Of a DNA stretch of 64,000 nucleotides, positions 5,835 through 38,070 are shown one piece after another. The position numbers and the translations under genes were made by a program. Positions within the stretch are counted from its first letter, which is position 1. Each line of letters opens with the position of its first letter. Location of the stretch: contig NZ_CP069535.1 of assembly GCF_016889805.1 (NCBI RefSeq), forward strand, positions 2,418,001-2,482,000, written 5' to 3'. The notes beneath the pieces are model-generated. The model did not search any database and was not told the DNA's origin. It saw only the letters and a list, made by a program, of their open reading frames with translations. Origin of the DNA: Rhodanobacter sp. FDAARGOS 1247. Lineage in GTDB: Bacteria > Pseudomonadota > Gammaproteobacteria > Xanthomonadales > Rhodanobacteraceae.

Positions 5835-5883
5835 GATCGGTCGACTCGCAGCCCGGTAGAAACGGGCTCAATGAAAACGAAGG

Positions 5884-8776: not shown

Positions 8777-8796
8777 AGCGCGCCTCGCTGCATAAC

Positions 8797-8872: not shown

Positions 8873-8878
8873 TTGTTT

Positions 8879-8990: not shown

Positions 8991-9040
8991 GCATTCTGCG
9001 ACACTCGTCTGCAGTGCATATCCTTTGAGAGCCCTCTTCC

Positions 9041-9364: not shown

Positions 9365-9390
9365 TATCGCGCCGCGCCGATGCCCGATGC

Positions 9391-9418
9391 GAAAACGCCG
9401 CCCGAGGGCGGCGTTTTC
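9391..9418. terminator. bidirectional terminator between fdxA and the BamC-like gene
   Basis: Perfect 13-bp arms GAAAACGCCGCCC and GGGCGGCGTTTTC surround a 2-nt centre. An A run lies on one side and a T run on the other, so it can act on both convergent genes. Confidence 0.85.
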
Positions 9419-9436
9419 AATGGCCGGACGGAAGAC

Positions 9437-10027: not shown

Positions 10028-10062
10028 GTAATCGGATTCCGTAAGGTAAGTCAGGCAACCGT

Positions 10063-10977
10063 TCAACCGGCCGCAGTCGCCAAGGATGCCAGACTGGACA
10101 GCGCTTGGTGCAATCGGGCGCGATCCGGACCGTCGTTCAGTTCCACCAGCGGCAACCTCGGCAGGGCCAGTCCCAGCCCCAGCACAGGCAAACCGGCCTT
10201 GACCGCGATCGGGTTCGGCGCGCAGTTGAGCGCCTCGACCAGGGGTTCCAGCGCGGCATGACAACGCGCGGTGGCCGCCCGATCTCCGCCGGTGGCCGCG
10301 TCGCACAAGTCACGGAACGCCCGCGGCACCAAGTTGGCCACCACCGAGATGGTGCCGGCGGCACCGGCCAGCATCGCCTGCCCGGCTGTGCCGTCGTCGC
10401 CGGACAGATAGACGAAATCCGGACGCACAAGTTCCGCCAGCGCCGAAATCCGCGGCTGGTCGCCACTGGCCTCCTTGATGCCCACGATCGCGGGATGATC
10501 ACGCAGTGCGGCGACCGTCTCCGGCAGGACATCGCAACCGGTACGGCTCGGCACGTTGTAGAGCAGTACCGGCAGCTCGCCGTGTTCGGCCACTTCCAGG
10601 TAGTGGCGGCGCATGCCTTCCTGGGTCGGCCGCACGTAGAACGGCGCCACCACCAGGGCCGCATCGGCGCCCAGCGCACGGGCCCGCCGGGTCAGTGCCA
10701 CCGTTTTTGCGGTGCCCGCCTCGCCGGTACCGGCAATCACCGGAACCCGTCCGTTCACCCGATCGACGGCAAACGCCAGCAGGCGCTCGAACTCGTCGTG
10801 TTCGAGCATGTGCGCTTCACCGGTGGAGCCGGCCACCACCAGCGCCTGGGTGCCGCCGGCGATCTGGTAATCAAGCAGCCGACCGAAGGCCGCCAGATCG
10901 AGCGAGCCATCGGCCGCGAACGGCGTGACCAGCGCGCAGATGCTTCCGCGAATGTTCAAGACCCGATTCCACTGCAA
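10063..10977 (-). CDS. dapA: 4-hydroxy-tetrahydrodipicolinate synthase
   Basis: DapA condenses pyruvate with aspartate semialdehyde, the first dedicated step to diaminopimelate and lysine. The 304-residue TIM barrel shows GSICALVTPF, VVAGSTGEAHML (pyruvate-binding TGE), the LLYNVPSRTGCD motif with catalytic Tyr, and GIKEASGD with the Schiff-base Lys. No ATG is available at the N-terminus: TTG at 10975-10977 and TTG at 10957-10959 (giving NIRGSICALVTPF) are both plausible, and I give the longer one. The gene is divergent from gcvR and is followed by the BamC-like gene. Confidence 0.93.
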   Translation of the reverse strand: MQWNRVLNIRGSICALVTPFAADGSLDLAAFGRLLDYQIAGGTQALVVAGSTGEAHMLEHDEFERLLAFAVDRVNGRVPVIAGTGEAGTAKTVALTRRARALGADAALVVAPFYVRPTQEGMRRHYLEVAEHGELPVLLYNVPSRTGCDVLPETVAALRDHPAIVGIKEASGDQPRISALAELVRPDFVYLSGDDGTAGQAMLAGAAGTISVVANLVPRAFRDLCDAATGGDRAATARCHAALEPLVEALNCAPNPIAVKAGLPVLGLGLALPRLPLVELNDGPDRARLHQALSSLASLATAAG

Positions 10978-11085
10978 GGCAAGCCCTGCATGTTACTTGC
11001 CGCTTCGCGAGCCGGGCAAGTAAGCTCGATGGGAGTAGTCTCACCGTTCCGCATCACGCGGTCGACGTTACGCAGGCAGACCTCC

Positions 11086-11649
11086 TTGAAATCCACTTCC
11101 GGCTCCGCACGCTCGGGCAACGACAACCAGTTGCTGATCCATGCGCTTACCACCTCGACCCAGTCGCCACTGCTGGCACTGGCCCGGCGAATCGCCGACG
11201 CCGGCTGCAACCTGTCCGAATCGCGAGTCGCCACCATCGGCACGGAAACCTCGCTGATGCTGCTGGCCAGCGGCGCCTGGGACGCCCTGGCCAAGCTGGA
11301 AACAGCCCTGGCCAAGCTGACCCGCGACGAGAGCATGCGGCTGGTGCACTACCGCACCGGGCCGCGCGAGAACAGCTCGCACCTGCTGCCTTATCTGGTG
11401 GAAGTGGTGGCCGCCGACCGGCCGGGCATCGTGGCCCGCATCGTGGACTTCTTCAGCCAGCACGGCATCAGCGTGGAGCAGCTCAACTCCACCCGCTATC
11501 ACGCCATGCAGACCGGGGCGGAGATGTTCCAGGCCCAGTTCACCATCGGCATTCCGGCGGAAATCCACATCGCCGCCTTGCGCGACGACTTCCTGGAACT
11601 GTGCGACGGCCTGAATCTCGACGCGATCATGGACCCGGTCAAATTCTGA
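11086..11649 (+). CDS. gcvR: glycine cleavage system repressor-like ACT protein
   Basis: GcvR-type proteins contain two ACT domains and, in E. coli, inhibit the activator GcvA in the absence of glycine. Here the first ACT domain starts LLIHALTTSTQSPLLALARRIADAG and the second starts YLVEVVAADRPGIVARIVDFFSQHGISVEQL, ending DGLNLDAIMDPVKF. The TTG at 11086 places about 16 residues before the first ACT domain, as in relatives I remember; the in-frame ATG at 11029 would add 19 residues. The pair gcvR-bcp is common in gammaproteobacteria. No GcvA gene is in the window. Confidence 0.82.
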   Translation: MKSTSGSARSGNDNQLLIHALTTSTQSPLLALARRIADAGCNLSESRVATIGTETSLMLLASGAWDALAKLETALAKLTRDESMRLVHYRTGPRENSSHLLPYLVEVVAADRPGIVARIVDFFSQHGISVEQLNSTRYHAMQTGAEMFQAQFTIGIPAEIHIAALRDDFLELCDGLNLDAIMDPVKF

Positions 11650-11902
11650 GCCGGTGACATCCGCCGAGCATCGCGCGATCGTGGCGTCCTGACAAGGACT
11701 GTCCTGCGCCAAGCCACCCGCGCTAGTCTGTGGCCGTGAGTTGCCGGAGGACCGTTGCATTGCAGCCAGCTTGTCGAATCACCCCGACCCTTTCCGGCGC
11801 AACAGCTCGCCCTGCCGCCGTCGCAACGTCGACCTCAGCGGCCTTCTCCATCCTTTCCTTTTCCCACACGTCGCGGCATCGCCTCGCCGCGCAGGACCCC
11901 TC

Positions 11903-12364
11903 ATGCCCGATATCGGCAAGAAACTGCCCGCACTGAAAGGCCTCACCGGCGACGGCAGCGAACTGAAGCTGTCCAGCCTCAAGGGACAATGGCTGGTGGT
12001 GTATTTCTACCCGAAGGACTCGACGCCAGGATGCACCACCGAAGCGAAGGACTTTCGCGACCTCTACCCGGCCTTCCGCAAGCGCCATGCGCAGATCATC
12101 GGTGTCTCGCGCGATTCGCAGAAGTCGCACGCGAACTTCGCCAACAAGCAGGAACTGCCGTTCCCGCTGGTCTCCGATGCCGACGAAACCTGGTGCCGCG
12201 CCTTCGACGTGATCCACGAAAAAGTGCTGTACGGCAAACGCTTCATGGGCATCGTGCGCAGCACGTTCCTGATCGATCCGGAGGGCAAGCTGGCCGCGGA
12301 ATGGCGTGGCGTGAAAGTTTCCGGCCATGCGCAGGCCGTGCTCGACGCCATTCCCGCTGCCTGA
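11903..12364 (+). CDS. bcp: thioredoxin-dependent peroxiredoxin, Bcp/PrxQ family
   Basis: Bcp reduces hydrogen and organic peroxides. The 153-residue protein has the peroxidatic cysteine in DSTPGCTTEAKDF (Cys44). The position five residues later that holds the second Cys in E. coli Bcp is Lys here, so the alpha2-type resolving cysteine is missing. Another Cys at position 98 (DETWCRAF) could resolve, or the enzyme may work as a 1-Cys form. The ATG at 11903 was chosen since upstream in-frame sequence is low-complexity and not Bcp-like. It follows gcvR on the same strand. Confidence 0.93.
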   Translation: MPDIGKKLPALKGLTGDGSELKLSSLKGQWLVVYFYPKDSTPGCTTEAKDFRDLYPAFRKRHAQIIGVSRDSQKSHANFANKQELPFPLVSDADETWCRAFDVIHEKVLYGKRFMGIVRSTFLIDPEGKLAAEWRGVKVSGHAQAVLDAIPAA

Positions 12365-27838: not shown

Positions 27839-27859
27839 TTGCGTATCTGGCGGAGAGAG
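27798..27859. repeat. inverted repeat containing two facing tRNA-Ser 3' ends and a terminator
   Basis: Left arm 27798-27826 and right arm 27831-27859 are complementary at 28 of 29 positions around TTGC. Each outer part equals the last bases of tRNA-Ser (CTCTCTCCGCCA) plus GATACGC; the inner part is a GC-rich terminator stem (ACGCCCC with GGGGCG). The right arm overlaps the attachment repeat. I infer it holds the original downstream terminator of the tRNA gene. Confidence 0.75.
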
Positions 27860-27861
27860 AG
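27839..27861. other. attL of the satellite element
   Basis: The 23 bp are identical to 38048-38070. The sequence is the end of tRNA-Ser (encoded CCA included) plus nine bases beyond it. The segment from here to 38070 starts with an integrase gene and ends at the intact tRNA, as expected for tRNA-targeted integration. Confidence 0.85.
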
Positions 27862-27996
27862 TCCGGGGAAGGCTCGTCCGGCCCCGTTCGCCCGTTTCCG
27901 AAAATGATCGCCAAGCCTATGTGTTGCAAGCATTTTTCTGCCTAACCTCGTCCGGCGACGTTCGCTAGAATCCGCCTACAGCGCCTATACTTCGTA

Positions 27997-28015
27997 GGGA
28001 CGGAAGTCGGGACGG
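27997..28015. repeat. GGGACG-type paired repeat near the left end (candidate integrase/excisionase arm site)
   Basis: Two GGGACGG units are spaced 12 bases start to start. A copy matching 16 of 19 positions lies at 37986-38004 near the other end in the same orientation. No other copy was noticed. Confidence 0.5.
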
Positions 28016-28035
28016 TCAGTTTGGCGGAGGCAAGT

Positions 28036-29265
28036 ATGAACAACAGGCTCACAGCGATCGGCGTCAGGAACACAACGAAACCGGGGAGGTACTGCGACGG
28101 GGGCGGGCTGTATCTGTACGTTCCCGCCACCAAGTTTCGCGGCGGCAAACGGTGGGTCTTTCGATGGCGCGACCGGATCACGGGCAAGACCCGAGACAAG
28201 GGACTCGGCCCCGTCAGCGACGTGACGCTCATCAAGGCGCGCGAAAAGGCGGCTGAGTACCGGCAGCAAGTTCGCGACGGCATCGACCCCATCGACTCCG
28301 CACGGCAGGCCCTCGCCGCCGTAAAGCTGGAACGCGCCCGGCGGCTCACCTTCGGGCAGTGCTGCGAGAAGTACATGGATGCGCACCGCGACGGCTGGCG
28401 CAATGCGAAGCATGCCGCGCAATGGCAATCCACACTCGACACCTATTGCGCCTCACTGCTCCCGCTTCCCGTCGCCGAGATTGATACCGCCCTCGTCATC
28501 AAGGCGCTGGAGCCGATCTGGACGACTAAAACCGAAACCGCCACCCGCGTCCGGCAGCGCATCGAGGCGGTGTTGAATTGGGCGACGGCCCGCGAGTTTC
28601 GTACTGGCGAAAATCCGGCGCGCTGGCGCGGGCATCTCGACAAGTTGCTACCAAAGCCGACCAAGCTGAAAAAGGTCGAACACCGCGCCGCCCTCCCCTA
28701 CACCGAGGCTGGCGCGTTCATGACCGAGCTACGCCAGCAAAAGGGGCTGGGCGCGCTCGCACTGGAACTGCAAATTTTGACCGCCTGCCGACCGGGCGAA
28801 GTGGCCGGTGCGCGGTGGGCCGAGTTCGACCTAGACGCGGCTACCTGGACGATTCCGGGCGAGCGCATGAAGGCCGGCAAGGAGCATCGTGTACCGCTGT
28901 CGCCGCCCGCTGCCGCGTTGCTGCGCAAGCTGCCCCGTGTCAATGCGTTCGTGTTCCCTGGCCCGAAGAAGGGCCAATCCCTCACGACCGCCGCCATGCT
29001 CAAGGCGCTACGCACCGCGCGCCCCGGCTTCGACGCACACGGCTTCCGCAGTACGTTCCGCGATTGGGCCGCTGATCAGACCGCCTACCCGCGCGATGTA
29101 GCCGAAGCCGCGCTGGCGCACGCCGTCCAAGGTGTAGAGGCCGTGTATCGTCGCACCGACTTGTTGAACAAGCGCGCCCGCCTCATGGCGGACTGGGCGA
29201 AGTACTGCGCGAAGCCCGCGTCCACCGGCAACGTGCGCGGTATTCGCGAGGGGGCGAAGGCATGA
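28036..29265 (+). CDS. int: tyrosine integrase, P4/DUF4102 type
   Basis: This site-specific recombinase inserts and excises the element at tRNA-Ser. The 409-residue protein has the N-terminal arm-binding domain (LTAIGVRNTTKPGRYCDGGGLYLYV, WVFRWRDRITGKTRDKGLG), a core-binding SAM-like domain, and a catalytic domain with Arg252 (TACRPGEVAGARW), His335 and Arg338 (HGFRSTFRDW), a His in LAHAV and the nucleophile Tyr371 (AVYRRTDLL). The ATG at 28036 has GGAGG five bases upstream. It lies next to attL, so it is at the end opposite to the intact tRNA. The next gene overlaps its stop. Confidence 0.96.
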   Translation: MNNRLTAIGVRNTTKPGRYCDGGGLYLYVPATKFRGGKRWVFRWRDRITGKTRDKGLGPVSDVTLIKAREKAAEYRQQVRDGIDPIDSARQALAAVKLERARRLTFGQCCEKYMDAHRDGWRNAKHAAQWQSTLDTYCASLLPLPVAEIDTALVIKALEPIWTTKTETATRVRQRIEAVLNWATAREFRTGENPARWRGHLDKLLPKPTKLKKVEHRAALPYTEAGAFMTELRQQKGLGALALELQILTACRPGEVAGARWAEFDLDAATWTIPGERMKAGKEHRVPLSPPAAALLRKLPRVNAFVFPGPKKGQSLTTAAMLKALRTARPGFDAHGFRSTFRDWAADQTAYPRDVAEAALAHAVQGVEAVYRRTDLLNKRARLMADWAKYCAKPASTGNVRGIREGAKA

Positions 29266-29810
29266 GCATCAAGAAATTTCGTGATCCGGCTGGACTGCTT
29301 CCTGTGCGAGTCAGGGTGAACATTAAGCATGGAAGCAACCAACTCGACATTGATGCGATCGCGAGCATTTTGAAGTCGAACAGCCCCACTGCGCGTATCC
29401 AGCAACTTCGCCGCCACCATACATTGCGATCCGAAGCAAGCGCGCTCAAAAAGGACTATCTCGTCGCGACAACTGCTGTCGAGGATGCGGACAACAAACT
29501 TACTGCGGAACATAAAGCAGCACTAAAAGATGTCAGGTTAAAGGCTTTTATGATTCGGTTGGAAAGCGCCGAGAAAAAGTCGATCTACCTTGACGCTGCT
29601 GAACCTCTAATACGCGACAAGGCACGACAGGAAGGAACGAAGAAGGAACGACGCCCAGACGTAACGGAATGGATTTCAGCCAAGTTGCGGCGCGATCCAT
29701 TGGCCAAATCCCCTGAGCTTTGGAGCCGCGCGCCGGAATGGCTCACCGATCAGATTGGCTATGAGCGATTTCGCAAGCGGGTAACTGCTGTTCGGATGGG
29801 GCGCAAGTAA
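29262..29810 (+). CDS. hypothetical protein of the satellite, coupled to the integrase
   Basis: I do not recognise this 182-residue protein. It is charged, with a helical middle (TLRSEASALKKDYLVATTAVEDADNK and around) and a C-terminal part WLTDQIGYERFRKRVTAVRMGRK that is basic. No membrane segment, signal peptide or cysteine is present. Its ATG overlaps the integrase TGA (29262-29265), so it is translated from the same message and may influence integration or regulation. Base composition is visibly lower in GC than in the host genes. Confidence 0.7.
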   Translation: MSIKKFRDPAGLLPVRVRVNIKHGSNQLDIDAIASILKSNSPTARIQQLRRHHTLRSEASALKKDYLVATTAVEDADNKLTAEHKAALKDVRLKAFMIRLESAEKKSIYLDAAEPLIRDKARQEGTKKERRPDVTEWISAKLRRDPLAKSPELWSRAPEWLTDQIGYERFRKRVTAVRMGRK

Positions 29811-29841
29811 CTAACGGCACAATTCAATTGCAGCTTGTCTC

Positions 29842-29859
29842 ACGTCGCATGTGCGACGT
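29842..29859. promoter_or_regulatory. 18-bp palindrome upstream of the small 29.9-kb gene (candidate operator)
   Basis: ACGTCGCA and TGCGACGT flank a 2-bp centre with perfect symmetry, 16 bp before the ATG at 29876. The tight centre suits a dimeric repressor site better than an RNA hairpin. Confidence 0.4.
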
Positions 29860-29875
29860 ACAAGAGACAAACGAT

Positions 29876-30109
29876 ATGAACGAGTTGACCTTGGCGGAAA
29901 AGGAAGCAATCTTGCGCAGTGAACCCGGACTCTGCCTTGACGATCTTGATGGTGCGTTAAGTGTTGAGATTGTTTGTGGCCCGGATGGTCATGGAAACAT
30001 CGACGGTTTTCTCATTTGCCAGATAGCCGGAGAGAAACCTGACTACGTTGATGTAAGGATCAAACGGTTTCGGTACCCGTTATCTTCCGGGAAGATGAAA
30101 GCCAACTGA
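29876..30109 (+). CDS. small hypothetical protein of the satellite
   Basis: This is a 77-residue acidic protein (MNELTLAEKEAILRSEPGL, then LDDLDGALSVEIVCGPDGH and a beta-rich end). The function is not recognised. The ATG at 29876 is preferred; a TTG 48 bases upstream is in frame but would cover the palindrome. It stands between the integrase pair and a strong terminator at 30157, so it is probably the last gene of the integrase transcript or a separately regulated gene. Confidence 0.55.
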   Translation: MNELTLAEKEAILRSEPGLCLDDLDGALSVEIVCGPDGHGNIDGFLICQIAGEKPDYVDVRIKRFRYPLSSGKMKAN

Positions 30110-30156
30110 GGCAAACGAAGCATTTTCTGGAAATGGCAAAAGGATGTGATGCTGTC

Positions 30157-30187
30157 GAAAGGGTCGCTAGTAAATAGCGACCCTTTC
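30157..30187 (+). terminator. strong intrinsic terminator-like hairpin
   Basis: Perfect 13-bp arms GAAAGGGTCGCTA and TAGCGACCCTTTC surround GTAAA. It separates the integrase-side genes from the AlpA/helicase genes. Confidence 0.75.
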
Positions 30188-30201
30188 CATTTCGAAACTC
30201 T

Positions 30202-30243
30202 GTCCGTAGCCCACCGACCAAGCGGCTACGGACGCGGGCATTT
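30202..30243. promoter_or_regulatory. inverted repeat GTCCGTAGC upstream of the AlpA-like gene
   Basis: GTCCGTAGC (30202-30210) and GCTACGGAC (30235-30243) are perfect 9-bp arms separated by 24 bp, ending 33 bp before the AlpA-like ATG. It may be a regulator-binding site or part of a promoter region. Confidence 0.35.
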
Positions 30244-30276
30244 CCGTCGCGTCCAATCTCGAAAGAGGAACGCGAC

Positions 30277-30483
30277 ATGAAAGACGACAAGACCCCTGCA
30301 CCGCTGGCGTACTCCCCGCTGGACGCAGCGCGCCGTCTCGGCGTAGGCCGCTCCACCATCTACGAACTTATCAAGTCCGGCGAGCTGGAAGTCAGCAAGC
30401 TCGGCACCCGCACTTTGATCCATGCCGATTCCTGCGAGCGCGTGCTTGAGAAGTCTCGCGTGAAGTCGGGCAGCCGCGCGTGA
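30277..30483 (+). CDS. AlpA/excisionase-like HTH protein
   Basis: The 68-residue protein has a MerR-like helix-turn-helix of the HTH_17/excisionase class: SPLDAARRLGVGRSTIYELIKSGELEVSKLGTRTLIH. In P4-like satellites, AlpA proteins of this type activate integrase/excision or control early genes. Start is ATG 30277 with AAGAGGAA upstream. Its TGA overlaps the GTG of the helicase gene (30480-30483), so both are on one message. Whether it acts as excisionase or transcription regulator cannot be told from sequence. Confidence 0.85.
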   Translation: MKDDKTPAPLAYSPLDAARRLGVGRSTIYELIKSGELEVSKLGTRTLIHADSCERVLEKSRVKSGSRA

Positions 30484-32222
30484 GTCGCAAACGCAAGCCT
30501 GATCTGGAGGGCGCATCGTCGCCTGACCTGACGCCAGAGATGCGGGAAGAGGCGCTGCACCTGCTCGCTGAAGAAGAAGCTGGGATGAGTGAAACGGAAC
30601 GCCGCGCGAAGGCCGACGCGAAGCGTAAACGGCTGCACAAAGAGCATCGTGCGCAGCAGCGTAAGAAAAAGAGCGGTGCTTCTGGCGGTGGCGGTGAAGA
30701 ACAAACTGAAACCCCAGCAATGCCAGCGGCTGATCCGCGAATCGCGGAAGAAGTGCGCCGGTTCATGGAAGGCCAGCAGCAACGCATAGAAGAGGACGAC
30801 GAGCGCAACCCGGTGCTGCCGTCGCTGAATACCAATCCGTTCGGCGCGGCGACCATCGTGCTGGATCGGTTCTTCACGAAGGACAGGGTTCGACTGCTGA
30901 TCTACTACCGAGAAGATTGGTACCGCTACAAGAACCAACGCTGGGTGCTGGTGAGCAAGAAGGATGTGGAAAGCGTCTTGTTCAAGCGCCTCCTGCTCTG
31001 CCGGCAGGTCGATGCGGAAGGCGAGATTCATCCTTTTGTGACGTCGCAGCCGAACGTCAGCAAAATCTATTTTCAAATTGAGAACAACGAGACGATCCCG
31101 TCAGATCTGACGGTGCCTTGCGTGCGCGAGCCGGACGGGAATTGGCACGAAGTCGATGGGCAGGGACAGATGGTGTGTCGCGGCGAGATCGTGGACATGA
31201 TGACGGGGGCTGCGAAGCCGACCTTGCATATGTTCGTGCCGAACGGCGCGGACTGGCGCTATGCCCCGGATGCCCCGAACCCTGAACGCTGGCTCCAGTT
31301 CCTTGAAGAGTTGTTCGGCAAAAAGGCCGACGAAATCGCCGTGCTACAAGAGTGGTTTGGCTACGTGCTTAGCGGCGACACATGGGCGCAAAAGGCGCTG
31401 CTCATCGTCGGGCCGAAGCGCGCAGGTAAGGGCACCATCGGCGGAGTGCTGAAGCTGTTGTTGGGTAAGTCGATGGTGTCTAGCCCAGCGATCAATGCCA
31501 TTGGGGATCGGTTCGGGCTTCAAGACTCCATCAACAAGCGACTGCTGCTGGTCAGCGATGCCAAGCTGTCGAGTAAAAAGGACACGATGGCGGTTGTCGA
31601 AAACCTGCTGCGCATTGTGGGCAATGACCCGGTCATGGTGGATCGAAAAGGCAAGGAGCCGATCACCGATCAGCTAGGCGTCCGGGTAATGATGCTGACG
31701 AATACGCTGCCGCAATTTGCAGACAGCTCGGATGCCATCAGCTCGCGCTTCCTGATCCTCCAGTTGGGCAAATCGTTTTTTGATAACGAAGATCACCAAC
31801 TGCTGGACAAGTTGACTGATGAACTTCCTGGCATCGCCCTGTGGTCGATTGAAGGCTATCAGCGTCTGCGTGAGCGGGGCCGGTTCGATGAGCCGGAAAG
31901 CTCCGAGCAGGCTCGCAAGGATTGGTACGAAACCGGAAACCCGCTTGCCGAGTTTGTGAAGGACTACTGCGTGTTTCCGTCAGCGAATAGCGCCAAGCCA
32001 GAAGATTTTACGTATGCCTACAACGTGTGGCGGCAGAAGCGAGAAATGACGGTCATTGCCTCCAATAAACTGATCCAAGAACTGCAGGCTATGCACGGTG
32101 ATGGCATCAAGCGCGGCTACAAAGGTAGCGATCGTTGCTGGCGTGGAATAGAGCTCAATGAACTTGGAAAAGAGCTTTTGCCTCCGCCCCCCGATCCCCG
32201 CGATGTACCCAATGGATTTTGA
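30480..32222 (+). CDS. phage/plasmid-type SF3 helicase (D5/P4 family) without primase domain
   Basis: The 580-residue protein begins with about 110 highly charged residues, partly coiled coil (EHRAQQRKKKSGASGGGGEEQ), followed by a D5_N-like domain (DRFFTKDRVRLLIYYREDWYRYKNQRWV) and an SF3 helicase core. The core has Walker A GPKRAGKGT at residues 311-319, NKRLLLVSDAKL and LTNTLPQFADSSDAISSRFL (SF3 motif C and Arg finger region). A C-terminal winged-helix-like part follows. The N-terminal archaeo-eukaryotic or zinc primase domain seen in P4 alpha is missing, so priming must come from elsewhere. It starts with a GTG overlapping the AlpA stop and is directly followed by the iteron region. Confidence 0.92.
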   Translation: MSRKRKPDLEGASSPDLTPEMREEALHLLAEEEAGMSETERRAKADAKRKRLHKEHRAQQRKKKSGASGGGGEEQTETPAMPAADPRIAEEVRRFMEGQQQRIEEDDERNPVLPSLNTNPFGAATIVLDRFFTKDRVRLLIYYREDWYRYKNQRWVLVSKKDVESVLFKRLLLCRQVDAEGEIHPFVTSQPNVSKIYFQIENNETIPSDLTVPCVREPDGNWHEVDGQGQMVCRGEIVDMMTGAAKPTLHMFVPNGADWRYAPDAPNPERWLQFLEELFGKKADEIAVLQEWFGYVLSGDTWAQKALLIVGPKRAGKGTIGGVLKLLLGKSMVSSPAINAIGDRFGLQDSINKRLLLVSDAKLSSKKDTMAVVENLLRIVGNDPVMVDRKGKEPITDQLGVRVMMLTNTLPQFADSSDAISSRFLILQLGKSFFDNEDHQLLDKLTDELPGIALWSIEGYQRLRERGRFDEPESSEQARKDWYETGNPLAEFVKDYCVFPSANSAKPEDFTYAYNVWRQKREMTVIASNKLIQELQAMHGDGIKRGYKGSDRCWRGIELNELGKELLPPPPDPRDVPNGF

Positions 32223-32695
32223 TGCCAGCTGCATGCGTTTTTATCGTCGGCATATCGTCGGTTTGATCGTCGGTCTACCGACGGTCACCGCCCCCGGGGC
32301 TGCACAAGCAACGAAGTCGCATTTGCCGGCAGATGGGTATCACGCTGCCACCGACGATCAAACCGACGATATGCCGACGATACTGCCGACGGTTCTAAGC
32401 CTTGGTATAGCTGCGTTGCCGACGATACCGACGATTACTTTCTATTTCCCCGGATAAGGAAAAAAAGATAGGGAATAGAGAGATAGAGGGTAAGGAGTAG
32501 GTTTTTAGCGTCGGTATCGTCGGCCCCCCTGTCGAGTTGATAAATCGCCCCGGCAGTTTCGCGGCCGACTCGCCCCGGCAGCACCGAGACCATGCAGGAG
32601 CTTGTAGGAGCGCCTCGCGCGGCTCGCCGGTAGTTCGGGGCTGCGGTAACTACCCGGTCGCCGCGTAGCGGGCCGGAGAAATAGGAGAAGAGCTG
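32223..32695. other. candidate replication origin: CCGACGAT iterons, 33-bp inverted repeat, AT-rich tract
   Basis: This 473-bp gene-free stretch holds at least nine copies of CCGACGAT or its complement (32243-32523) plus CCGACGGT variants. Six copies lie in a perfect inverted repeat with 33-bp arms (32242-32274 and 32350-32382) around a 75-bp centre. Beyond them is an AT-rich, purine-biased tract (32436-32505), which could be the unwinding element, then two more copies (32509-32523). A smaller dyad GGTAGTT/AACTACC is at 32629-32654. Position right after the helicase gene supports an origin. It could alternatively be a regulatory array. Confidence 0.65.
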
Positions 32696-33010
32696 ATGCC
32701 GATACATAACTGCCCCTGCTGCCGGTGTGACCACGACGACGATGCGGATCGCGCTGCGCGGATAACCGACCGCATCGAATCCTTCACCCGCGACTGCGAA
32801 CGTTTGGGCTATCGAGTGGAAGCAAATCGAGTTGACCCCCGCACGGCAGCGAATTTGTTGGGCATGAAACCGAAAACATTTAACGGATGGCGGACCTCAG
32901 GCGACGGCCCGCGCGCTGAGCGCATTCCCGTCAATCGTTCACAGTATTCCTACGATCTGAATGTGCTGGCGGCATGGTCTGTCGATCAAAGGATTGAAAA
33001 AAAGTTCTAG
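32696..33010 (+). CDS. Cys-rich HTH protein, candidate regulator of the capsid genes
   Basis: The 104-residue protein starts MPIHNCPCCRCDHDDD, a cluster of four Cys-type ligands and His that could bind zinc, and continues with an HTH_17-like fold: VDPRTAANLLGMKPKTFNGWRTSGDGPRA, then YDLNVLAAW, the usual closing helix of excisionase-type HTHs. The ribosome-binding site AGGAGAAG is strong. It sits between the iteron region and the capsid gene, so I infer a DNA-binding role, either origin-related or as a late-gene activator. It is not a recognised Ogr/Delta protein, though the Cys cluster invites comparison. Confidence 0.7.
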   Translation: MPIHNCPCCRCDHDDDADRAARITDRIESFTRDCERLGYRVEANRVDPRTAANLLGMKPKTFNGWRTSGDGPRAERIPVNRSQYSYDLNVLAAWSVDQRIEKKF

Positions 33011-33024
33011 CAGCACCGATTTGA

Positions 33025-33054
33025 TGACCATCGTTGACCATAGATCACCATAGA
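33025..33054 (+). promoter_or_regulatory. three tandem 10-bp repeats upstream of the capsid gene
   Basis: TGACCATCGT, TGACCATAGA and TCACCATAGA follow one another without gaps, i.e. one unit per helical turn, 57 bp before the capsid ATG. This phasing suggests a protein bound on one face of the helix, possibly an activator of the late genes. Confidence 0.5.
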
Positions 33055-33110
33055 CGTCCAAACGACTGGCGCATGCTCGACGCGTACCTACTCGCACGAG
33101 GATTTCCCCC

Positions 33111-34118
33111 ATGTCGTTCTCCACTGGCCCGCGTGGCCGTTTCTATATCCGCAGCCTCTGCACGCAGATCGGTGGCGGCGCTTCGCCTGAACTAGCCAAT
33201 AGCTTCGCTGCTGCCCGCTGGGGCGCTGAAGGCCTCGCCATCTCCAAGGCTGCTGTGGCTGCGCTAACATCTGGCGACATTGGCACGCCAGAAGCCACTG
33301 AATATCTGAATGCCGTGCGTGAGCGCAGCGTACTCGGCGGCTTGCTCGGCACTCGCCCCGTCGCCTTCAATCGACGCATGCTGGCGCGTACGAATGGCGC
33401 CATTGGTTTTTGGGTAGGCGAAGCCGCACCCGCACCGATGCTCAAGGCCGTACTTGCCGGCAGCACGTTGAAAGCCAAAAAGGTCGTGGCGCTGATCGCG
33501 GTCACTGACGAAGGCATGCGTGCGGAAAGTCCCGCTGTCGAAGCTGGGTTACAGGCCGACTTGGAAACCGGGTGTGCCGGTGCTATTGATCAAGCGTTTC
33601 TCGACCCTAGCAACGCGGGCAGCGACACCATGCCGGCTTCGGTCACGCACGGCGCTCCGATCATCGCCGCCAGCAGTGATGCCGCCGCCGATCTCAAGGC
33701 GCTGGTCGCTGCGTTCGCGGGCGACCTGTCCACCAGCTATTTGATTACAGACCCATCGACGGCTACCGCGCTCGCAATGGTGCGTGGTGCTAACGGATCG
33801 TTCTTGTTTCCCGACGCTGGCCCGCGCGGCGGCTCCGTGCTCGGCATCCCGTTGCTGGTGAGCCGCCATAGTCCGCGTGATACAGCCGGTGGGATGCTCG
33901 CCCTGGTGGACGCGTCCGGTATCGCGCTCGCCATGGACAGCATCGAGATCAGCCAGTCCGATCAGACCTCGCTTGCTATGGCCGACACGCCGACGTCTCC
34001 AGCAACGATGGTGAGCCTCTTCCAGACCGGCACCACGGCCATGAAGGCTGTGATCCGCTGCAATTTCGAGAATCAGCGCGTCGGCGGCGTCGCGGTGCTC
34101 ACTGGGGTCGATTACTGA
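33111..34118 (+). CDS. HK97-type phage major capsid protein
   Basis: The 335-residue protein has the character of a mature HK97-fold subunit. After a short N-terminal arm it shows VLGGLLGTRPVAFNRRML, GAIGFWVGEAAPAPMLKAVLAGSTLKAKKVVALIAVTDE (E-loop/P-domain region), a long spine helix region, DLSTSYLITDPSTATALAMVRG, GGSVLGIPLLVS and the C-terminal MVSLFQTGTTAMKAVIRCNFE. There is no room for the roughly 100-residue delta domain that HK97 capsids remove with a protease, and no protease gene is present. Portal, large terminase and tail genes are also absent. Identification is by family pattern, moderately strong. Confidence 0.85.
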   Translation: MSFSTGPRGRFYIRSLCTQIGGGASPELANSFAAARWGAEGLAISKAAVAALTSGDIGTPEATEYLNAVRERSVLGGLLGTRPVAFNRRMLARTNGAIGFWVGEAAPAPMLKAVLAGSTLKAKKVVALIAVTDEGMRAESPAVEAGLQADLETGCAGAIDQAFLDPSNAGSDTMPASVTHGAPIIAASSDAAADLKALVAAFAGDLSTSYLITDPSTATALAMVRGANGSFLFPDAGPRGGSVLGIPLLVSRHSPRDTAGGMLALVDASGIALAMDSIEISQSDQTSLAMADTPTSPATMVSLFQTGTTAMKAVIRCNFENQRVGGVAVLTGVDY

Positions 34119-34276
34119 TGACCATCCTCGACGAGCAGTATGCCGCCATGACCAAGGCCGAGCGTGATGCGCCGGCTACGCGCGGCGACTTGATGCAATT
34201 CATCGCGCTCATGCTCAAGCACATGAAGGCACTCAACCAGCGCATCAAGGAATTGGAGAAAGGAGCGCACTCATGA
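34118..34276 (+). CDS. 52-aa protein coupled to the capsid gene
   Basis: This short gene starts at an ATG sharing its first base with the capsid stop (TGATG at 34116-34120) and ends by overlapping the next ATG. The product begins MTILDEQYAAMTKAERDAPA and finishes with an amphipathic helix (LMLKHMKALNQRIKELEKG) that could form a coiled coil. The tight double overlap argues that it is real. A scaffolding, decoration or size-determining role is possible but is only inference from position. Confidence 0.65.
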   Translation: MTILDEQYAAMTKAERDAPATRGDLMQFIALMLKHMKALNQRIKELEKGAHS

Positions 34277-34536
34277 TGATGACTGACTTGAACGAAGCGG
34301 AACGTAACTTTCCGCGCGCGTGGAACAACGTCAAGGAACAGATCGCTTACTTGAAGCAGGTCACCGATGCCGACCTTGTGCCGTTCTCCGCCGAAGTCAT
34401 CGACGTCAAAGGTGTGCCGATGCTGGAGGTGTACGTCATGACGGACTTGGTGTTTGCGGACTCCAATAAGTCGCTCAACGCCATGCGCTTCCGCGCGTTC
34501 GTCCACGACCCAGCATCGTTGAAGAAGCTGCACTGA
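34273..34536 (+). CDS. 87-aa hypothetical protein after the capsid gene
   Basis: The product begins MMMTDLNEAERNFPRAWNNV and is a mixed alpha/beta protein of 87 residues (IDVKGVPMLEVYVMTDLVFADSNKSL). No family is recognised. Its ATG overlaps the stop of the 52-aa gene by four bases, so capsid, 52-aa and 87-aa proteins form one coupled unit. Candidate roles are capsid accessory or head-completion functions. About 107 bp without a gene follow before the small terminase gene. Confidence 0.65.
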   Translation: MMMTDLNEAERNFPRAWNNVKEQIAYLKQVTDADLVPFSAEVIDVKGVPMLEVYVMTDLVFADSNKSLNAMRFRAFVHDPASLKKLH

Positions 34537-34643
34537 TCGCAGCCGACCGGGGGGCGTGGTCAATGTTCCCCGCGCATGCGCCGGAATACGCCATCCCCAT
34601 CATTTTGATGTGAAACAAAGGTTGCCTCACAAAAAATCAGGCT

Positions 34644-34970
34644 ATGGCTACAGCAAAATCCCCGCCAAAAGGGCTGTCCACCGAGGCGAAAGCATGGTGG
34701 AAACGGCTGGCATCTGAGTACGGAATTGACGACGACGCAGGGCTTTTGCTGCTGCAAACCGGCCTTGAAGCCTTCGACCGAATGCGCGCCGCGCAAGAGG
34801 CGATCCAGCACGACGGCATGACCGTCCGCGACCGCTTCGATCAACGTAAGCCGCATCCACTCCTGCCCGCCGAGCGCGATGCCCGCGCCCAAATGCTCGC
34901 CGCGCTACGGGCGCTCAACCTCGACGTTGAACCGCTTCACGACCGCCCCGGTCGCCCGGCAGGGCGTTGA
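34644..34970 (+). CDS. phage terminase small subunit, P27-like
   Basis: The 108-residue protein resembles P27-family small terminases: LSTEAKAWWKRLASEYGIDDDAGLLLLQTGLEAFDRMRAAQEAI, then DRFDQRKPHPLLPAERDARAQMLAALRALNLDVEPL, with the usual conserved HP(L/A) block and the closing Leu-rich helix. Small terminase subunits choose the DNA to be packaged; in satellites such proteins redirect a helper's large subunit to satellite DNA. No large subunit gene is present here. Start is ATG 34644. Confidence 0.82.
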   Translation: MATAKSPPKGLSTEAKAWWKRLASEYGIDDDAGLLLLQTGLEAFDRMRAAQEAIQHDGMTVRDRFDQRKPHPLLPAERDARAQMLAALRALNLDVEPLHDRPGRPAGR

Positions 34971-34973
34971 CCG

Positions 34974-35510
34974 ATGCCGACCACACGCCGCCTTCGCACT
35001 CGCACCCGCCGCGAAACCATCGACCCGACGCACTGGGCAATCCTTACCGACGCATTGCCGCCGGCAGACGCCAATCCCTTCACCGCGCTGGACGCGGAGA
35101 GCTACGACGTCATGCGGTTGCTGTGGGAGGATCACCGCGCCGGCATCCTCCCGGATTGGATCAAGACCAAGCCAGGCACGCGCCCGGCGATGTGGTGGCG
35201 GTACGATGCACCGCGCCTCGACCCTACGCAGCTAGGGCGCTGGTCGCGTACCGTACTCGCACCGCGCATGATCGAGACGCGACGCAAGCTGCGCGGCGAC
35301 GGCAAGCCGCTCCATGAAGTGCTCGCCTACGCGCCAGCGCATCACTACGGGATTCCAGCTTGGTGCGGCGATCCCGACAACCCGCCCGTATTCGAGTCGC
35401 AGCACGCCTACCTCAAGCGTCACGGTCTACTGCTGCCGGCAGAGCGTCGTCCGTCCGCCGAACCGTTCTCGCACCCGCTGCGCATCGAGGATGCTAGGCG
35501 GTGGAAATAG
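34974..35510 (+). CDS. hypothetical phage-type protein next to the small terminase
   Basis: The 178-residue basic protein begins MPTTRRLRTRTRRETIDPTHW, has TRPAMWWRYDAPR in the middle and, near its end, PPVFESQHAYLKRHGLLLPAERR, a motif I associate with small proteins encoded near phage terminases. The exact function is unknown. It starts three bases after the small-terminase stop, so the two are co-expressed. It is the last plus-strand gene of the element. Confidence 0.68.
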   Translation: MPTTRRLRTRTRRETIDPTHWAILTDALPPADANPFTALDAESYDVMRLLWEDHRAGILPDWIKTKPGTRPAMWWRYDAPRLDPTQLGRWSRTVLAPRMIETRRKLRGDGKPLHEVLAYAPAHHYGIPAWCGDPDNPPVFESQHAYLKRHGLLLPAERRPSAEPFSHPLRIEDARRWK

Positions 35511-35629
35511 AGACGCGCGTGAAGTTTTTTGGCGTGATCGCGCGTTGGATCAATCCATTGGTTAACGTGGGCGGCACCATCGAGTGAGCCGCCATGTGCA
35601 CCGTGAATGTCGGTGCAGGTGGCGCTCGA

Positions 35630-36202
35630 CTACTTTGGCGGCGTGTTCTGCCTGTCCTCGTCGTCCTGGCTATCCAGATAGTCAAACATGCGCACCAAGT
35701 TCGCTCGAATAAGCCACAGTGCCCAAGCCAAGAGCAGCAACGAAACAGACACTGCCCATAGACAGACAAGTGCAGCCAGAAAACTGTGCACAAGGCCGAC
35801 AGTAAGTTGAAGCACTGCTGTCGATAGGCATGCCAGTATCGCCGCATAAAGCACTCCGCTCAGATAGCGAAGAGGGGTGTACCGCTTACCCATTTTGTTG
35901 TTGGTGTCGAGCTTCTTTTGATCATCCCATTCCTTTTTGTAGACGGGAGACTCAAAAACCTCCTTTTTCATGTTGACCACAATGAAGGTTTTAAGTGACA
36001 ACAAGAATCCACCAAGCGTCAAAAACCCTGCAAACAGACTGCCCCGCAACTTATCACCATAAAATGTCGTGAATCCATCGAAGGCGGAGCAATATGGGTG
36101 ATTAATGTCAATTAGTCCGCAATAATACAGGTGCGCGCTCGCGTAAACGGCATATGCTGCCGCCAACGATATCAAAGCAATGATAAAGGCACCCTTCTTC
36201 AT
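35630..36202 (-). CDS. four-helix membrane protein of the cargo module
   Basis: The 190-residue protein has four predicted membrane segments by eye (about 5-25, 58-78, 114-135 and 140-165), with a charged loop between helices 2 and 3 (KKEVFESPVYKKEWDDQKKLDTNN) and an acidic tail (LDSQDDEDRQNTPPK). It begins five bases after the stop of the 316-aa gene. The base composition is AT-richer than the flanks. No family is recognised. In a two-gene cassette with a soluble partner it could be a membrane-disrupting effector or its regulator, as in several abortive-infection systems; this is inference. Confidence 0.75.
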   Translation of the reverse strand: MKKGAFIIALISLAAAYAVYASAHLYYCGLIDINHPYCSAFDGFTTFYGDKLRGSLFAGFLTLGGFLLSLKTFIVVNMKKEVFESPVYKKEWDDQKKLDTNNKMGKRYTPLRYLSGVLYAAILACLSTAVLQLTVGLVHSFLAALVCLWAVSVSLLLLAWALWLIRANLVRMFDYLDSQDDEDRQNTPPK

Positions 36203-36207
36203 GACAG

Positions 36208-37158
36208 CTATTTTACCTTCTTCATGAAAATATGCTTATACGTATCCTTGCACGCAGCAATTAGTTCGTTAACCACTTGGTGTTCCGAGAACGTCGTCAC
36301 ATCCAGTTGATCAAGTTTACCTGCTACGGCGTCATATTCTTGTTCACCAAAGTGTTCAGGGATGTTTGCAATTTTTACTGAAAGCGGCACATCTTCATCA
36401 TCAATTTCATCAACGACCGAAACGCGGCCCGATTTGGGGTTAAGCATATCCACTGTTCCCTGGATTGCCTTGGCCAAAACGCCGACAGCCGTATCCGTCT
36501 TAAAGACGACCTTTTCTTTCTTTCGCCTTACATAGGGCGAAATTGGAACACCATTTTTCGCGTCCGGTTCAATAGCTGCGAGTTCGTACTCAAATCCCTT
36601 TATTTGCTTAAATCCTGCGAGGATATCAGCCAGATTTTCGTTATGCACCAATAACGCGAATGACATGGGAGCACGATATTTAGCGCGGATTGCCTTCTCC
36701 CTCTTTTGAGTCAGCTCACCAGCTTCTTTAGCCCCCTCCAACTCCTGTTCGGTCAGCATATGCGATAGCGTGAAGTATCTTTTTTTAAGGTAATCGCCAA
36801 AGGTAAATGTTGAGCAAGAATGAAAATAATGTTGGTAAATACCTAAACCATTATCCTTATTTACGACGAAAAAATTGAATTCCATCAATTTATTTTCGCC
36901 TTCAAGATTTTTTACACTGATAACGAAACCGCCGTCATCATCCTTCACGAGCTCGCAAAACGCCTTCTGATCCTTAACCGTAACGACTAATCCACGAACG
37001 AAATCCGGGTCGCTCTGGTCGTCAAGATAGAAACGACGTTCGTTAGATTTGCTTGTGTCGGGTTGGCCATTTTGGCTAGCCATGAGCGAAAAAACGTCGG
37101 CAACTGAGACATGGCCGTGACCGGCTTCCACCGAGAAGCCGTAAGAACGAACAATCAT
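36208..37158 (-). CDS. soluble 316-aa protein of unknown function, first gene of the cargo module
   Basis: I do not recognise the family. The protein begins MIVRSYGFSVEAGHGHVSVADV and contains VVTVKDQKAFCELVKDDDGGFVISVKNL, a helical stretch around LTEQELEGAKEAGELTQKREKAIRAKYR, and an acidic part VVDEIDDEDVPLSVKIANIP. It ends NELIAACKDTYKHIFMKKVK. No membrane segment, P-loop or obvious nuclease motif was seen. The codon use is AT-rich compared with the host. AGGGGG six bases before the ATG is a strong ribosome-binding site. With the membrane gene it forms a compact minus-strand operon at the right end of the satellite, a usual place for defence cargo. Confidence 0.75.
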   Translation of the reverse strand: MIVRSYGFSVEAGHGHVSVADVFSLMASQNGQPDTSKSNERRFYLDDQSDPDFVRGLVVTVKDQKAFCELVKDDDGGFVISVKNLEGENKLMEFNFFVVNKDNGLGIYQHYFHSCSTFTFGDYLKKRYFTLSHMLTEQELEGAKEAGELTQKREKAIRAKYRAPMSFALLVHNENLADILAGFKQIKGFEYELAAIEPDAKNGVPISPYVRRKKEKVVFKTDTAVGVLAKAIQGTVDMLNPKSGRVSVVDEIDDEDVPLSVKIANIPEHFGEQEYDAVAGKLDQLDVTTFSEHQVVNELIAACKDTYKHIFMKKVK

Positions 37159-37300
37159 GGATTCCCCCTTTTATGGCAGCCGACCATCCAGTCAATTCGG
37201 CTTCAACGCGAAGCCTGCCTCAGAACGCCCAGGGGTGCAAATCTCAGAGCAAGGTTCTCAGGGACGAGTCGCATGGACTGCGACTGCAACCGTTGCGAAG

Positions 37301-37329
37301 AAAAAGCCCCCGCATGCACGGGGGGCTCA
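37301..37329 (-). terminator. intrinsic terminator after the 49-aa gene
   Basis: On the minus strand AGCCCCC and GGGGGCT arms surround a short loop and are followed by TTTTTC. It lies eight bases after the stop of the small gene. Confidence 0.7.
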
Positions 37330-37336
37330 ACTACCG

Positions 37337-37486
37337 CTACTTTTTCTTAGATGGTGATGACGGCTTCGGCGGCGGCCGGTTGTGTTCTTTTTCAGTGGTC
37401 GCCTTGTGGCTCTTCGCGAAGCTCTCGGGAACAAATCGACCAGTCTTCGCACTGCGGTAGTCTGGAGGCCCTTTCTTGTCTGCCAT
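37337..37486 (-). CDS. 49-aa basic protein of the YRSAKTG type
   Basis: The short gene encodes MADKKGPPDYRSAKTGRFVP and continues ESFAKSHKATTEKEHNRPPP to a Lys-rich end. The pattern YRSAKTGR(F/Y)V followed by a TTEKE-like block occurs in many tiny proteins annotated as hypothetical or, without support, as transporters. GGGGA lies seven bases before the ATG and a terminator directly follows, so I consider it a real gene. It is soluble and basic; the function is unknown. Confidence 0.65.
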   Translation of the reverse strand: MADKKGPPDYRSAKTGRFVPESFAKSHKATTEKEHNRPPPKPSSPSKKK

Positions 37487-38023
37487 TGCCTGATCCCCAT
37501 TCTCGCCCGCTGGTGGGCAGCCTCATCATTCACCTGCACCGCCAGCAGATCAATCCAAGACATTGCAATGCGGGCTTCCCCTACACGTCAGCGCGCGACA
37601 GGCCGACGTTAGCCGCCTCCTGGCGAGGGCACAATGAAGCTGCCCCGTAAGTCTGGATACAAACTGACGGGAGTCAGGCGCAAGCCGACAACGGACGTCA
37701 GGCGGAACCGACGACCGGGTCAGCTTCCTAGACCATGCTCCTGGCCCGCTACAGGCCGCGCGTTGCACAAGGCTGGCCGATCTATCGCCCCAGCCACTGA
37801 GCGCGACGCGGTGGGCGCGCGACGACCGGAAAGTGCCTCCGACCATGCAGGCGTGTGCAGGAGGGCCGCGCGCTGGCCAACCCTTACCCCCGCCTACCCC
37901 GGAGCCTAGATCGCGAAGGCGAAAGGCGAGCGCCCCGCCCCGTTTCTCGTCCGTAGACGTCCGTTTACAAGCAGAATATCGCGTCGGGACGCAAAGCGGG
38001 ACGGATGAACTGCGGATACAAAA
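37487..38023. other. right end of the element, no convincing gene
   Basis: Several short frames are open on both strands, but none has a family pattern, good ribosome-binding site or neighbour support. A frame at 37634-37909 starts MKLPRKSGYKLTGVRRKP and then becomes Arg/Pro-rich shadow sequence. The only structured items seen are the GGGACG-type paired repeat at 37986-38004 and the terminator of tRNA-Ser that follows. Confidence 0.6.
37986..38004. repeat. GGGACG-type paired repeat near the right end
   Basis: GGGACGC and GGGACGG units are spaced 12 bases apart, matching 27997-28015 at 16 of 19 positions. It sits 44 bp inside attR. It is a candidate arm-type binding site for the integrase or AlpA-like protein. 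Confidence 0.5.
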
Positions 38024-38045
38024 AAGCCCCTTTTTTCAGGGGCTT
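38019..38045 (-). terminator. terminator of tRNA-Ser supplied by the element
   Basis: On the minus strand AAGCCCC, a TGAAAAAA loop and GGGGCTT are followed by a T run. It lies just beyond the attachment core, so the tRNA now ends transcription in element DNA, while a different terminator stem remains beside attL. Confidence 0.8.
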
Positions 38046-38047
38046 AG

Positions 38048-38070
38048 TTGCGTATCTGGCGGAGAGAGAG
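38048..38070. other. attR of the satellite element
   Basis: The 23 bp identical to 27839-27861 overlap the last 14 bases of tRNA-Ser, including CCA. Insertion leaves the tRNA intact because its end is restored by the repeat. Confidence 0.85.

What the first reader, a model, noticed from the sequence alone, without database searches (positions are those of the whole stretch)
27839..38070. A 10.2-kb satellite-like element with its own capsid protein and small terminase but no other virion genes
The element is bounded by identical 23-bp repeats at tRNA-Ser. It has integrase, AlpA-like regulator, SF3 helicase, putative origin, HTH regulator, HK97-type capsid, two tiny coupled genes, P27-like small terminase and cargo. 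There is no portal, maturation protease, large terminase, head-tail connector or tail gene. Established knowledge: PICIs redirect helper packaging with their own small terminase, and cf-PICIs encode a complete head. This gene set is between the two: a capsid subunit without portal or protease. It suggests capsid substitution or remodelling of a helper's head plus redirected packaging. A decayed prophage is the main alternative, but every gene present looks intact.
Basis: partly seen in the sequence, partly recalled or inferred. Interest (0 to 1): 0.85.

Follow-up and report, generated by a model that had tools for sequence, protein, structure and literature searches.

The report
Capsid-carrying phage satellite at tRNA-Ser
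This is a 10.2-kb island inserted in a bacterial tRNA gene, one of a recurring family in related bacteria, that carries a shortened phage-shell protein and a DNA-packaging guide but no other recognisable virion gene; it likely takes the rest of the particle from a helper phage and would shrink its head, a way of life already known from other phage satellites.

Summary
A 10,209-bp insertion with 23-bp att repeats sits in tRNA-Ser(GCT); a congener has the empty site. It carries int, alpA, P4-type primase-helicase, an iteron array, HTH, an HK97-fold capsid, two tiny genes (S1, S2), P27 terS, OrfX and two cargo genes; no portal, protease, TerL or tail gene was recognised.

It is not a decayed prophage. 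rep-hth-cap-S1-S2-terS-OrfX recurs in four other host genomes and, with another rep, in a viral contig, under purifying selection. Portal PF04860 and TerL PF03354 matched in 0 of 10 host genomes.

But "between PICI and cf-PICI" is no new class. Gram-negative PICIs carry a capsid gene in 21 of 29 reference cases; EcCICFT073, inspected here, has the same plan. SaPIbov5 Ccm is a capsid homologue that enters the helper's shell at pentamers and forces small heads.

New: a lineage of satellite capsids lacking most of the N-terminal region of their phage relatives, with partners S1/S2 seen only in this bacterial family. Likely mechanism: Ccm-like head shrinking plus TerS-redirected packaging. Helper, induction and particles are untested.

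The parts
27839..27861 (.). attL core, 23 bp
   Evidence: Identical to attR; single copy, continuous with tRNA-Ser, in the empty site of G190
28021..29265 (+). int, tyrosine integrase (start probably 28036)
   Evidence: PF13356, PF22022, PF00589; 84-88% identical to L013 and L012
29262..29810 (+). orf2, unknown, overlaps the end of int by 4 bases
   Evidence: 35% over 94 aa to an ORF at the same place in L013; no Pfam or PHROG match, only two NCBIfam matches at E 0.016 far under cut-off
30277..30483 (+). alpA-like excisionase/regulator
   Evidence: HTH_17 7.3e-10; 91% to L012 and L013
30480..32222 (+). rep: primase/SF3 helicase, P4 family
   Evidence: DUF5906; TIGR01613 7.4e-41; phrog_6088 1.2e-60
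32242..32524 (.). putative replication origin: ATCGTCGG iterons (9, both strands, in the scanned stretch 32150-32720) in inverted arrays beside an AT-rich stretch
   Evidence: 33-bp and 16-bp perfect inverted repeats; the same iteron 8-10 times after rep in L011, L012, L013, none in L021
32696..33010 (+). hth regulator
   Evidence: 74% in L012, 67% in L021, 32-37% in L011, L013 and L015; phrog_66 at 0.013 only
33111..34118 (+). cap: HK97-fold capsid, 335 aa, short N-terminal region
   Evidence: PF05065; Foldseek 1.2e-13 to Bxb1 capsid; 61 residues before the core against 115-422 in 70 of 78 viral homologues
34118..34276 (+). S1, 52 aa; shares 1 base with cap and 4 with S2
   Evidence: profile finds S1 in 8 of 10 related loci, not L014 or L016; aligned
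34273..34536 (+). S2, 87 aa, two helices and a three-stranded sheet
   Evidence: AF2 pLDDT 83.8; profile finds S2 in 9 of 10 related loci, not L014; 9 of 233 family genomes, 1 of 369 class genomes, own included
34644..34970 (+). terS, P27-type small terminase
   Evidence: PF05119 1.5e-7; in 6 of 10 related loci; pN/pS 0.10-0.31
34974..35510 (+). OrfX, unknown, directly after terS in the five closest relatives
   Evidence: 63-86% identity in 5 relatives; 5 of 10 related loci; no match in Pfam, PHROGs, NCBIfam
35630..36202 (-). cargo gene 2, membrane protein by eye
   Evidence: sequence; only PF11026 at 0.026, under cut-off; no PADLOC or NCBIfam match
36208..37158 (-). cargo gene 1, 316 aa, unknown
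   Evidence: 25% identical over 93% to a gene in 2 lambdoid phage records; in the one opened it lies inverted between the Q and holin genes
38048..38070 (.). attR core at the 3' end of tRNA-Ser(GCT)

Best explanation
The insert is a PICI-type phage satellite that encodes an HK97-fold capsid protein and a small terminase subunit but no other recognised virion gene, and it likely spreads by mixing its short capsid protein into a helper phage's shell, which would force small heads, while its TerS would steer the helper's large terminase to satellite DNA. Shown by sequence: exact insertion in tRNA-Ser, recurrence of the gene block, capsid homology (with an HK97 fold in the predicted model), a shorter N-terminal region than in phage relatives, conserved iterons. 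Inferred: int and AlpA excise it after a helper signal, rep copies it from the iteron array, Cap takes part of the lattice (as Ccm takes the pentamers in SaPIbov5), S1 and S2 adapt Cap to the helper, and the helper supplies major capsid protein, protease, portal, TerL and tail. The cargo pair is possibly an anti-phage system.
For: Empty site and att. Tentative island lengths of 9.1-10.4 kb in 7 of 9 loci tested. Same block in L011, L012, L013, L015 and, with another rep, L021. pN/pS: cap 0.25-0.35, terS 0.10-0.31, OrfX 0.18-0.37. 27 viral capsids form one side of a branch apart from all satellite capsids (SH-aLRT 95, quick tree). N-terminal region before the core: 61 aa here, 115 aa or more in 70 of 78 viral homologues; model shows helices 10-22 and 26-40 and a weak linker. 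Independent of the capsid search, an S2 search found 9 of 233 family genomes, 8 of them the capsid islands, the ninth a fragment. Precedent: Ccm, an HK97-fold homologue with a shorter delta domain (PMC5052747, passages), occupies pentamers of T=4 SaPIbov5 procapsids (PMC8569155, abstract and part of the discussion). Defence genes between block and tRNA in relatives: Thoeris, SMODS cyclase.
Against: In EcCICFT073, a Gram-negative PICI, deleting the capsid gene c1499 changed neither transfer nor interference. No helper found: no PF04860 portal or PF03354 TerL match in 10 of 10 hosts, 0 of 45 congeners over the portal cut-off. No terS profile hit in L014, L017, L018, L019, so TerS is not essential to the wider family. 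S2's predicted fold has no match of E 0.001 or better. How close Cap is to the helper's own shell protein is unknown. No induction, particle or packaging data.
Confidence: 0.53

Rival explanations
1. Satellite whose capsid gene has no role in transfer under its usual helper, as reported for EcCICFT073 c1499; DNA goes into full-size helper heads, guided by TerS.
For: c1499 and c1500 deletions did not change transfer or interference, and packaged DNA was phage-sized (PMC6092414, passages).
Against: cap has pN/pS 0.25-0.35, and 8 of 9 S2-bearing genomes, found by S2 alone, keep cap beside it, the ninth being a fragment. The islands were found through cap, so its presence there is no evidence of retention.
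Confidence: 0.22
2. Cap fully replaces the helper's capsid protein: satellite heads are made of Cap alone around a stolen portal, with helper protease and TerL.
For: HK97 fold over the whole core in the model.
Against: N-terminal region much shorter than in 70 of 78 viral relatives; Ccm, the tested analogue, cannot form shells alone.
Confidence: 0.13
3. Cap, S1 and S2 act only as interference: a capsid homologue that poisons helper assembly and protects the cell, with no part in satellite particles.
For: Cloned ccm alone cut helper titre 10^3- to 10^4-fold; the islands carry defence cargo.
Against: cap sits in one same-strand run with terS and OrfX in the five closest relatives.
Confidence: 0.08
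4. Decayed prophage remnant that lost most virion genes.
For: Capsid and TerS belong to phage families.
Against: Same reduced gene set in syntenic relatives, att sites, selection, conserved iterons; capsid apart from phage capsids in the tree.
Confidence: 0.02

Closest known systems
Gram-negative PICIs (EcCICFT073, PmCI172)
   Same: About 10-15 kb; int, AlpA-type regulator, primase, origin after it, then a lone capsid gene with neighbours; some carry terS; no portal, protease, TerL or tail gene. EcCICFT073 read in its record: int - HTH - small ORFs - primase - SSB - capsid - head decoration. Its int and primase are distantly similar to those of the window (23% each, E 4e-8 and 1e-9).
   Different: EcCICFT073 capsid is PF03864, no similarity to Cap (E 0.57); a decoration gene in place of S1/S2; no terS. 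No other window gene matches it at E 0.01. The examples of the 2018 paper are from Enterobacteriaceae and Pasteurellaceae.
SaPIbov5 and its Ccm protein
   Same: Satellite-encoded HK97-fold capsid homologue with a delta region shorter than the helper's.
   Different: Gram-positive island with a different regulator and cos packaging without its own TerS (partly recalled). Ccm's sequence was not compared here.
cf-PICIs (EcCIEDL933, EcCI2)
   Same: Own HK97-fold capsid; the EcCI2 capsid structure 9gyi is among the Foldseek matches (2.6e-9); tails come from a helper.
   Different: cf-PICIs also encode protease, portal, connectors, TerS, TerL and HNH (as quoted in PMC10690885); portal, protease and TerL not found here.
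P4-type satellites
   Same: P4-family primase C-terminal domain (TIGR01613); tRNA insertion (recalled for P4).
   Different: P4 resizes heads with the scaffold Sid, not a capsid homologue.

Membership tests
Gram-negative PICI | integrase, alpA- or merR-type regulator and replication module | tested here: met
   order int-alpA-rep, all on the + strand
Gram-negative PICI | replication origin directly after the primase/rep gene | tested here: inconclusive
   iteron array there, conserved in 4 islands, absent in L021 which has another rep; origin function not testable here
Gram-negative PICI | no phage structural or lytic genes apart from the accepted capsid gene and terS | tested here: met
   capsid in 21 of 29 reference GN-PICIs per PMC10111431. 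Lysis families were not searched separately
Gram-negative PICI | specific att site never used by prophages | tested here: inconclusive
   att and empty site shown; use of the site by prophages not surveyed
Gram-negative PICI | PICI-exclusive genes orthologous to those of described PICIs | tested here: inconclusive
   compared with one described PICI only: int and rep distantly similar, nothing else at E 0.01
Gram-negative PICI | induction by a helper phage and efficient packaging | not testable with these tools
   needs experiment
cf-PICI | portal, maturation protease and TerL encoded on the island | tested here: not met
   window proteins; whole genome for portal and TerL
Ccm-type capsid redirector (SaPIbov5) | HK97-fold capsid homologue with a shorter delta region than phage relatives | tested here: met
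   8 of 78 viral exceptions told in Tried and rejected
Ccm-type capsid redirector (SaPIbov5) | incorporation at pentamers and small heads | not testable with these tools
   needs cryo-EM of induced particles
Decayed prophage | broken or isolated copies, or relatives with full virion gene sets at the same site | tested here: not met
   one fragment copy, G155

The most novel reading that the evidence does not exclude
Rhodanobacteraceae carry their own lineage of satellites that shrink heads with a three-protein kit: a scaffold-stripped capsid protein plus S1 and S2, where S2 is a swappable adaptor that fits the satellite capsid to different helper shells. That would be a size-redirection device distinct from Sid, CpmAB, TcaP, Rcm and Ccm alone.
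Probability: 0.25. Interest if true: 0.65.

Novelty: new variant of a known kind. Interest (0 to 1): 0.42.

Why it matters
It shows the 'lone capsid gene' plan of Gram-negative PICIs with a different capsid family, in what is inferred to be Rhodanobacteraceae, and a satellite capsid that lacks most of the N-terminal region kept by most of its phage relatives. If Cap really enters helper shells, the natural variants with exchanged S2 would let one test what makes a capsid homologue a head-size switch, and why the one Gram-negative PICI capsid gene deleted so far (in the papers seen here) gave no phenotype.

Tried and rejected

Literature searches that showed no account of this lineage: (31 and 37 had no hits; one listed 10 of 218, 41 listed 15 of 21). 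bioRxiv preprints are not held as such; the original cf-PICI paper and the SatelliteFinder paper are not held, so a description there cannot be excluded.

Exceptions among the 78 viral capsids with a core match (80 contigs, the best 80 of 558 confirmed): L028 (64 aa) and L029 (94), island-like or mixed contigs; L035 (90), core identical to L034 (232), its frame starting at base 87 of the contig; L066-L069 and L078 (12 or fewer), of which L067 is nearly identical in core to L062 (153); the other four were not resolved. L070 (115) starts at base 1 of its contig. My notebook says 71 of 78; the recount is 70. After this recheck I lowered the main confidence slightly (0.55 to 0.53) and raised the passenger rival, because retention of cap in islands found through cap is not evidence.
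Full report
What is there. The window holds a 10,209-bp insertion between 23-bp direct repeats, 27839-27861 and 38048-38070, the second at the 3' end of tRNA-Ser(GCT). In the congener G190 (99% identical over 393 bases at the tRNA) the same left flank runs straight into tRNA-Ser at the 23-bp core. Three further congeners fetched for the site also have tRNA-Ser(GCT) joined to the right flank. GC is lower than in the flanks over most of the element. The flanking genes look like lpxH, csrA and alaS by eye; no family search was made for them.

Genes. On the + strand: int, orf2, alpA-like, rep (DUF5906; P4-family primase C-terminal domain), an iteron array, hth, cap, S1, S2, terS, OrfX; on the - strand a two-gene cargo. 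cap and S1 share one base, S1 and S2 four, which suggests translational coupling. Among the window proteins scanned no portal, prohead protease, large terminase, connector or tail family matched.

It recurs. A capsid search of 233 genomes of the family gave 10 with a match at 1e-10, the window's included, in 4 of 26 genera; 398 genomes drawn from the order gave 4 at 1e-30, all of the same family. Four other genomes (G160, G017, G198, G152) and the 9.3-kb viral contig L021 carry hth-cap-S1-S2-terS-OrfX in the same order; the four genomes also share rep, while L021 has another replication module. G160's island lies at tRNA-Pro and its integrase gave no BLAST match to ours. Over 10 related loci (L011-L019, L021) profiles find S1 in 8, S2 in 9, terS in 6 and OrfX in 5; the profiles were built from several of these same loci. 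L014 and L016-L019 are the more distant ones. Lengths between the tRNA and a far copy of its end are 9.1-10.4 kb in 7 of 9 loci; two of the repeats are only 14 and 17 bp; none was found for L015 (contig end) or L019.

It is not decaying. Crude Nei-Gojobori counts: pN/pS 0.25-0.35 for cap, 0.10-0.31 for terS, 0.18-0.37 for OrfX, 0.30-0.34 for rep; S1 (0.35-0.68) and S2 (0.20-0.71) change faster. S2 is 83% identical to that of L013 but 36-38% to L011, L012 and L021, although these capsids are all 71-80% identical to Cap; S2 thus seems to be exchanged independently of cap (inference). Since searched with cap, its presence there says nothing about retention. The S2 search is independent: 9 of 233 family genomes, 8 of them capsid islands, and G155 with a 41-position fragment and no other gene of the set in the 16 kb around it.

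No resident helper. PF04860 portal and PF03354 TerL: 0 of 10 host genomes, with controls ringing in 4 and 3 of 14 genomes. PF05119 TerS occurs in 5 of 10, each time inside the island. In the genus, 0 of 45 genomes exceed the portal cut-off. Two hosts hold interrupted TerL-like frames elsewhere. The helper may be lytic or of a type not searched.

Other island genes. 62 ORFs picked by hand (most cap, S1, S2, terS and some int genes left out, and not every ORF taken) gave 28 Pfam families; the 25 shown hold integrases, AlpA, primases, helicases and defence domains, and no portal, TerL or tail. A ClpP-like SDH protease in L016 is an opposite-strand gene beside the tRNA. PHROGs at 1e-14 gave 23 families, none described as head or tail, 8 without description; at 1e-3 only 25 of 83 were displayed. 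Cargo: a SMODS cyclase with a second gene (L013, and homologues in L015), Thoeris ThsB and ThsA (L017, and homologues in L018), an AAA_21 ATPase (L012). The window's 316-aa cargo protein has a distant homologue in two lambdoid phage records; in the one opened it is inverted between Q and holin genes, a place I recall as typical for accessory genes.

The capsid. The predicted model of Cap has an HK97 fold: AlphaFold2 mean pLDDT 75.8; Foldseek best match the Bxb1 capsid, E 1.2e-13 at modest TM-scores (0.49, 0.43), with HK97, SaPI1 and the cf-PICI EcCI2 also listed. Of 80 viral contigs fetched with a capsid profile, 78 had a core match, and 70 of these 78 have 115-422 residues before the core, against 61 here. 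The longest ones have the length of the protease-capsid fusions annotated in E. coli phages; fusion was not checked contig by contig. The model puts helices at 10-22 and 26-40 and a weak linker at 46-55: a reduced delta-like region (inference). In a quick tree of 40 capsids, 27 chosen viral ones form one side of a branch (SH-aLRT 95). The eight nearer satellite capsids group with the viral contigs L028 and L029 (89), and L017-L019 lie on a long branch of their own; long branches meet, so deep order is unsure. S1, S2, TerS and OrfX profiles hit none of the 80 viral contigs at 1e-3, and S2 hit 1 of 369 genomes drawn from the class, the window's own.

What is already known. The introduction of PMC10111431 (read whole) says GN-PICIs most often carry a major capsid gene, 21 of 29 reference PICIs, not required for transfer. 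PMC6092414 (abstract and passages) describes EcCICFT073 with capsid c1499 and decoration c1500, deletions without effect on transfer, and PmCI172, which makes small capsids and encodes a capsid homologue; some new PICIs carry terS. PMC6893505 (passages) discusses the same. In the EcCICFT073 record I saw int, HTH regulator, small ORFs, primase, SSB, capsid, decoration and hypothetical genes, with no portal, protease or terminase annotated; its capsid is PF03864 and unlike Cap, while int and primase are distantly similar. SaPIbov5 Ccm is an HK97-fold homologue of the helper capsid protein with a delta region 44 residues shorter and is needed for small heads (PMC5052747, passages); it occupies the pentamers of T=4 procapsids and cannot form shells alone (PMC8569155, abstract and part 1 of 2 of the discussion). 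cf-PICIs, as quoted in PMC10690885 (passages), encode the whole head and both terminase subunits. Among the names in the novel case, TcaP is recalled and Rcm comes from a search listing.

Judgement. The observation and the satellite reading stand; the claimed new class does not. The best mechanism is Ccm-like: Cap joins helper capsid protein, the shell closes small, TerS steers packaging. The strongest counter-evidence is that c1499 of EcCICFT073 showed no phenotype. What is new, as far as these searches go, is a lineage with its own capsid family, capsids with a short N-terminal region, and partner genes seen only in this bacterial family and one viral contig.

Noticed in passing
L021:2320-4610: The viral contig with the same cap-S1-S2-terS-OrfX block has a different replication module (RepB primase and AAA_25 type, assigned by reading) and no ATCGTCGG-type iterons: replication modules seem to be swapped as a unit.
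   Followed up: partly
L028 (IMGVR_UViG_2914902374_000002), 5503-11975: A 15.8-kb contig with, by eye, integrase, primase and a TerS-like ORF (no Pfam match), a 340-aa short capsid (PF05065) and a 698-aa ORF that resembles a tape-measure protein by eye (no Pfam match): possibly another lone-capsid element.
   Followed up: partly
L029:8179-11966: A short capsid on the satellite side of the tree, followed by a prohead protease (PF04586) and a lambda tail I homologue (PF06805): either a mixed element or a prophage remnant.
   Followed up: partly
L013:6430-8078, L015:5067-6715, L017:12190-13595, L018:10354-11759: The slot between the block and the tRNA holds defence systems (SMODS/CBASS-like, Thoeris) in related islands, so the unknown two-gene cargo of the window is a candidate anti-phage system.
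   Followed up: partly
window:27612-27859: Repeated hairpin-forming copies of the sequence downstream of tRNA-Ser (31-bp repeat at 27612 and 27806, inverted copy at 27798); short related matches are scattered through the genus.
   Followed up: no
L015:3523-3816: S1 of this island carries an extra C-terminal stretch that looks by eye like a small glycan-binding phage module, which may link S1 to a phage head or fibre protein.
   Followed up: no
window:37337-37486: A 49-aa minus-strand ORF with an RSAKTGRFV motif in the otherwise nearly empty stretch before attR; no PHROG or PADLOC match.
   Followed up: no
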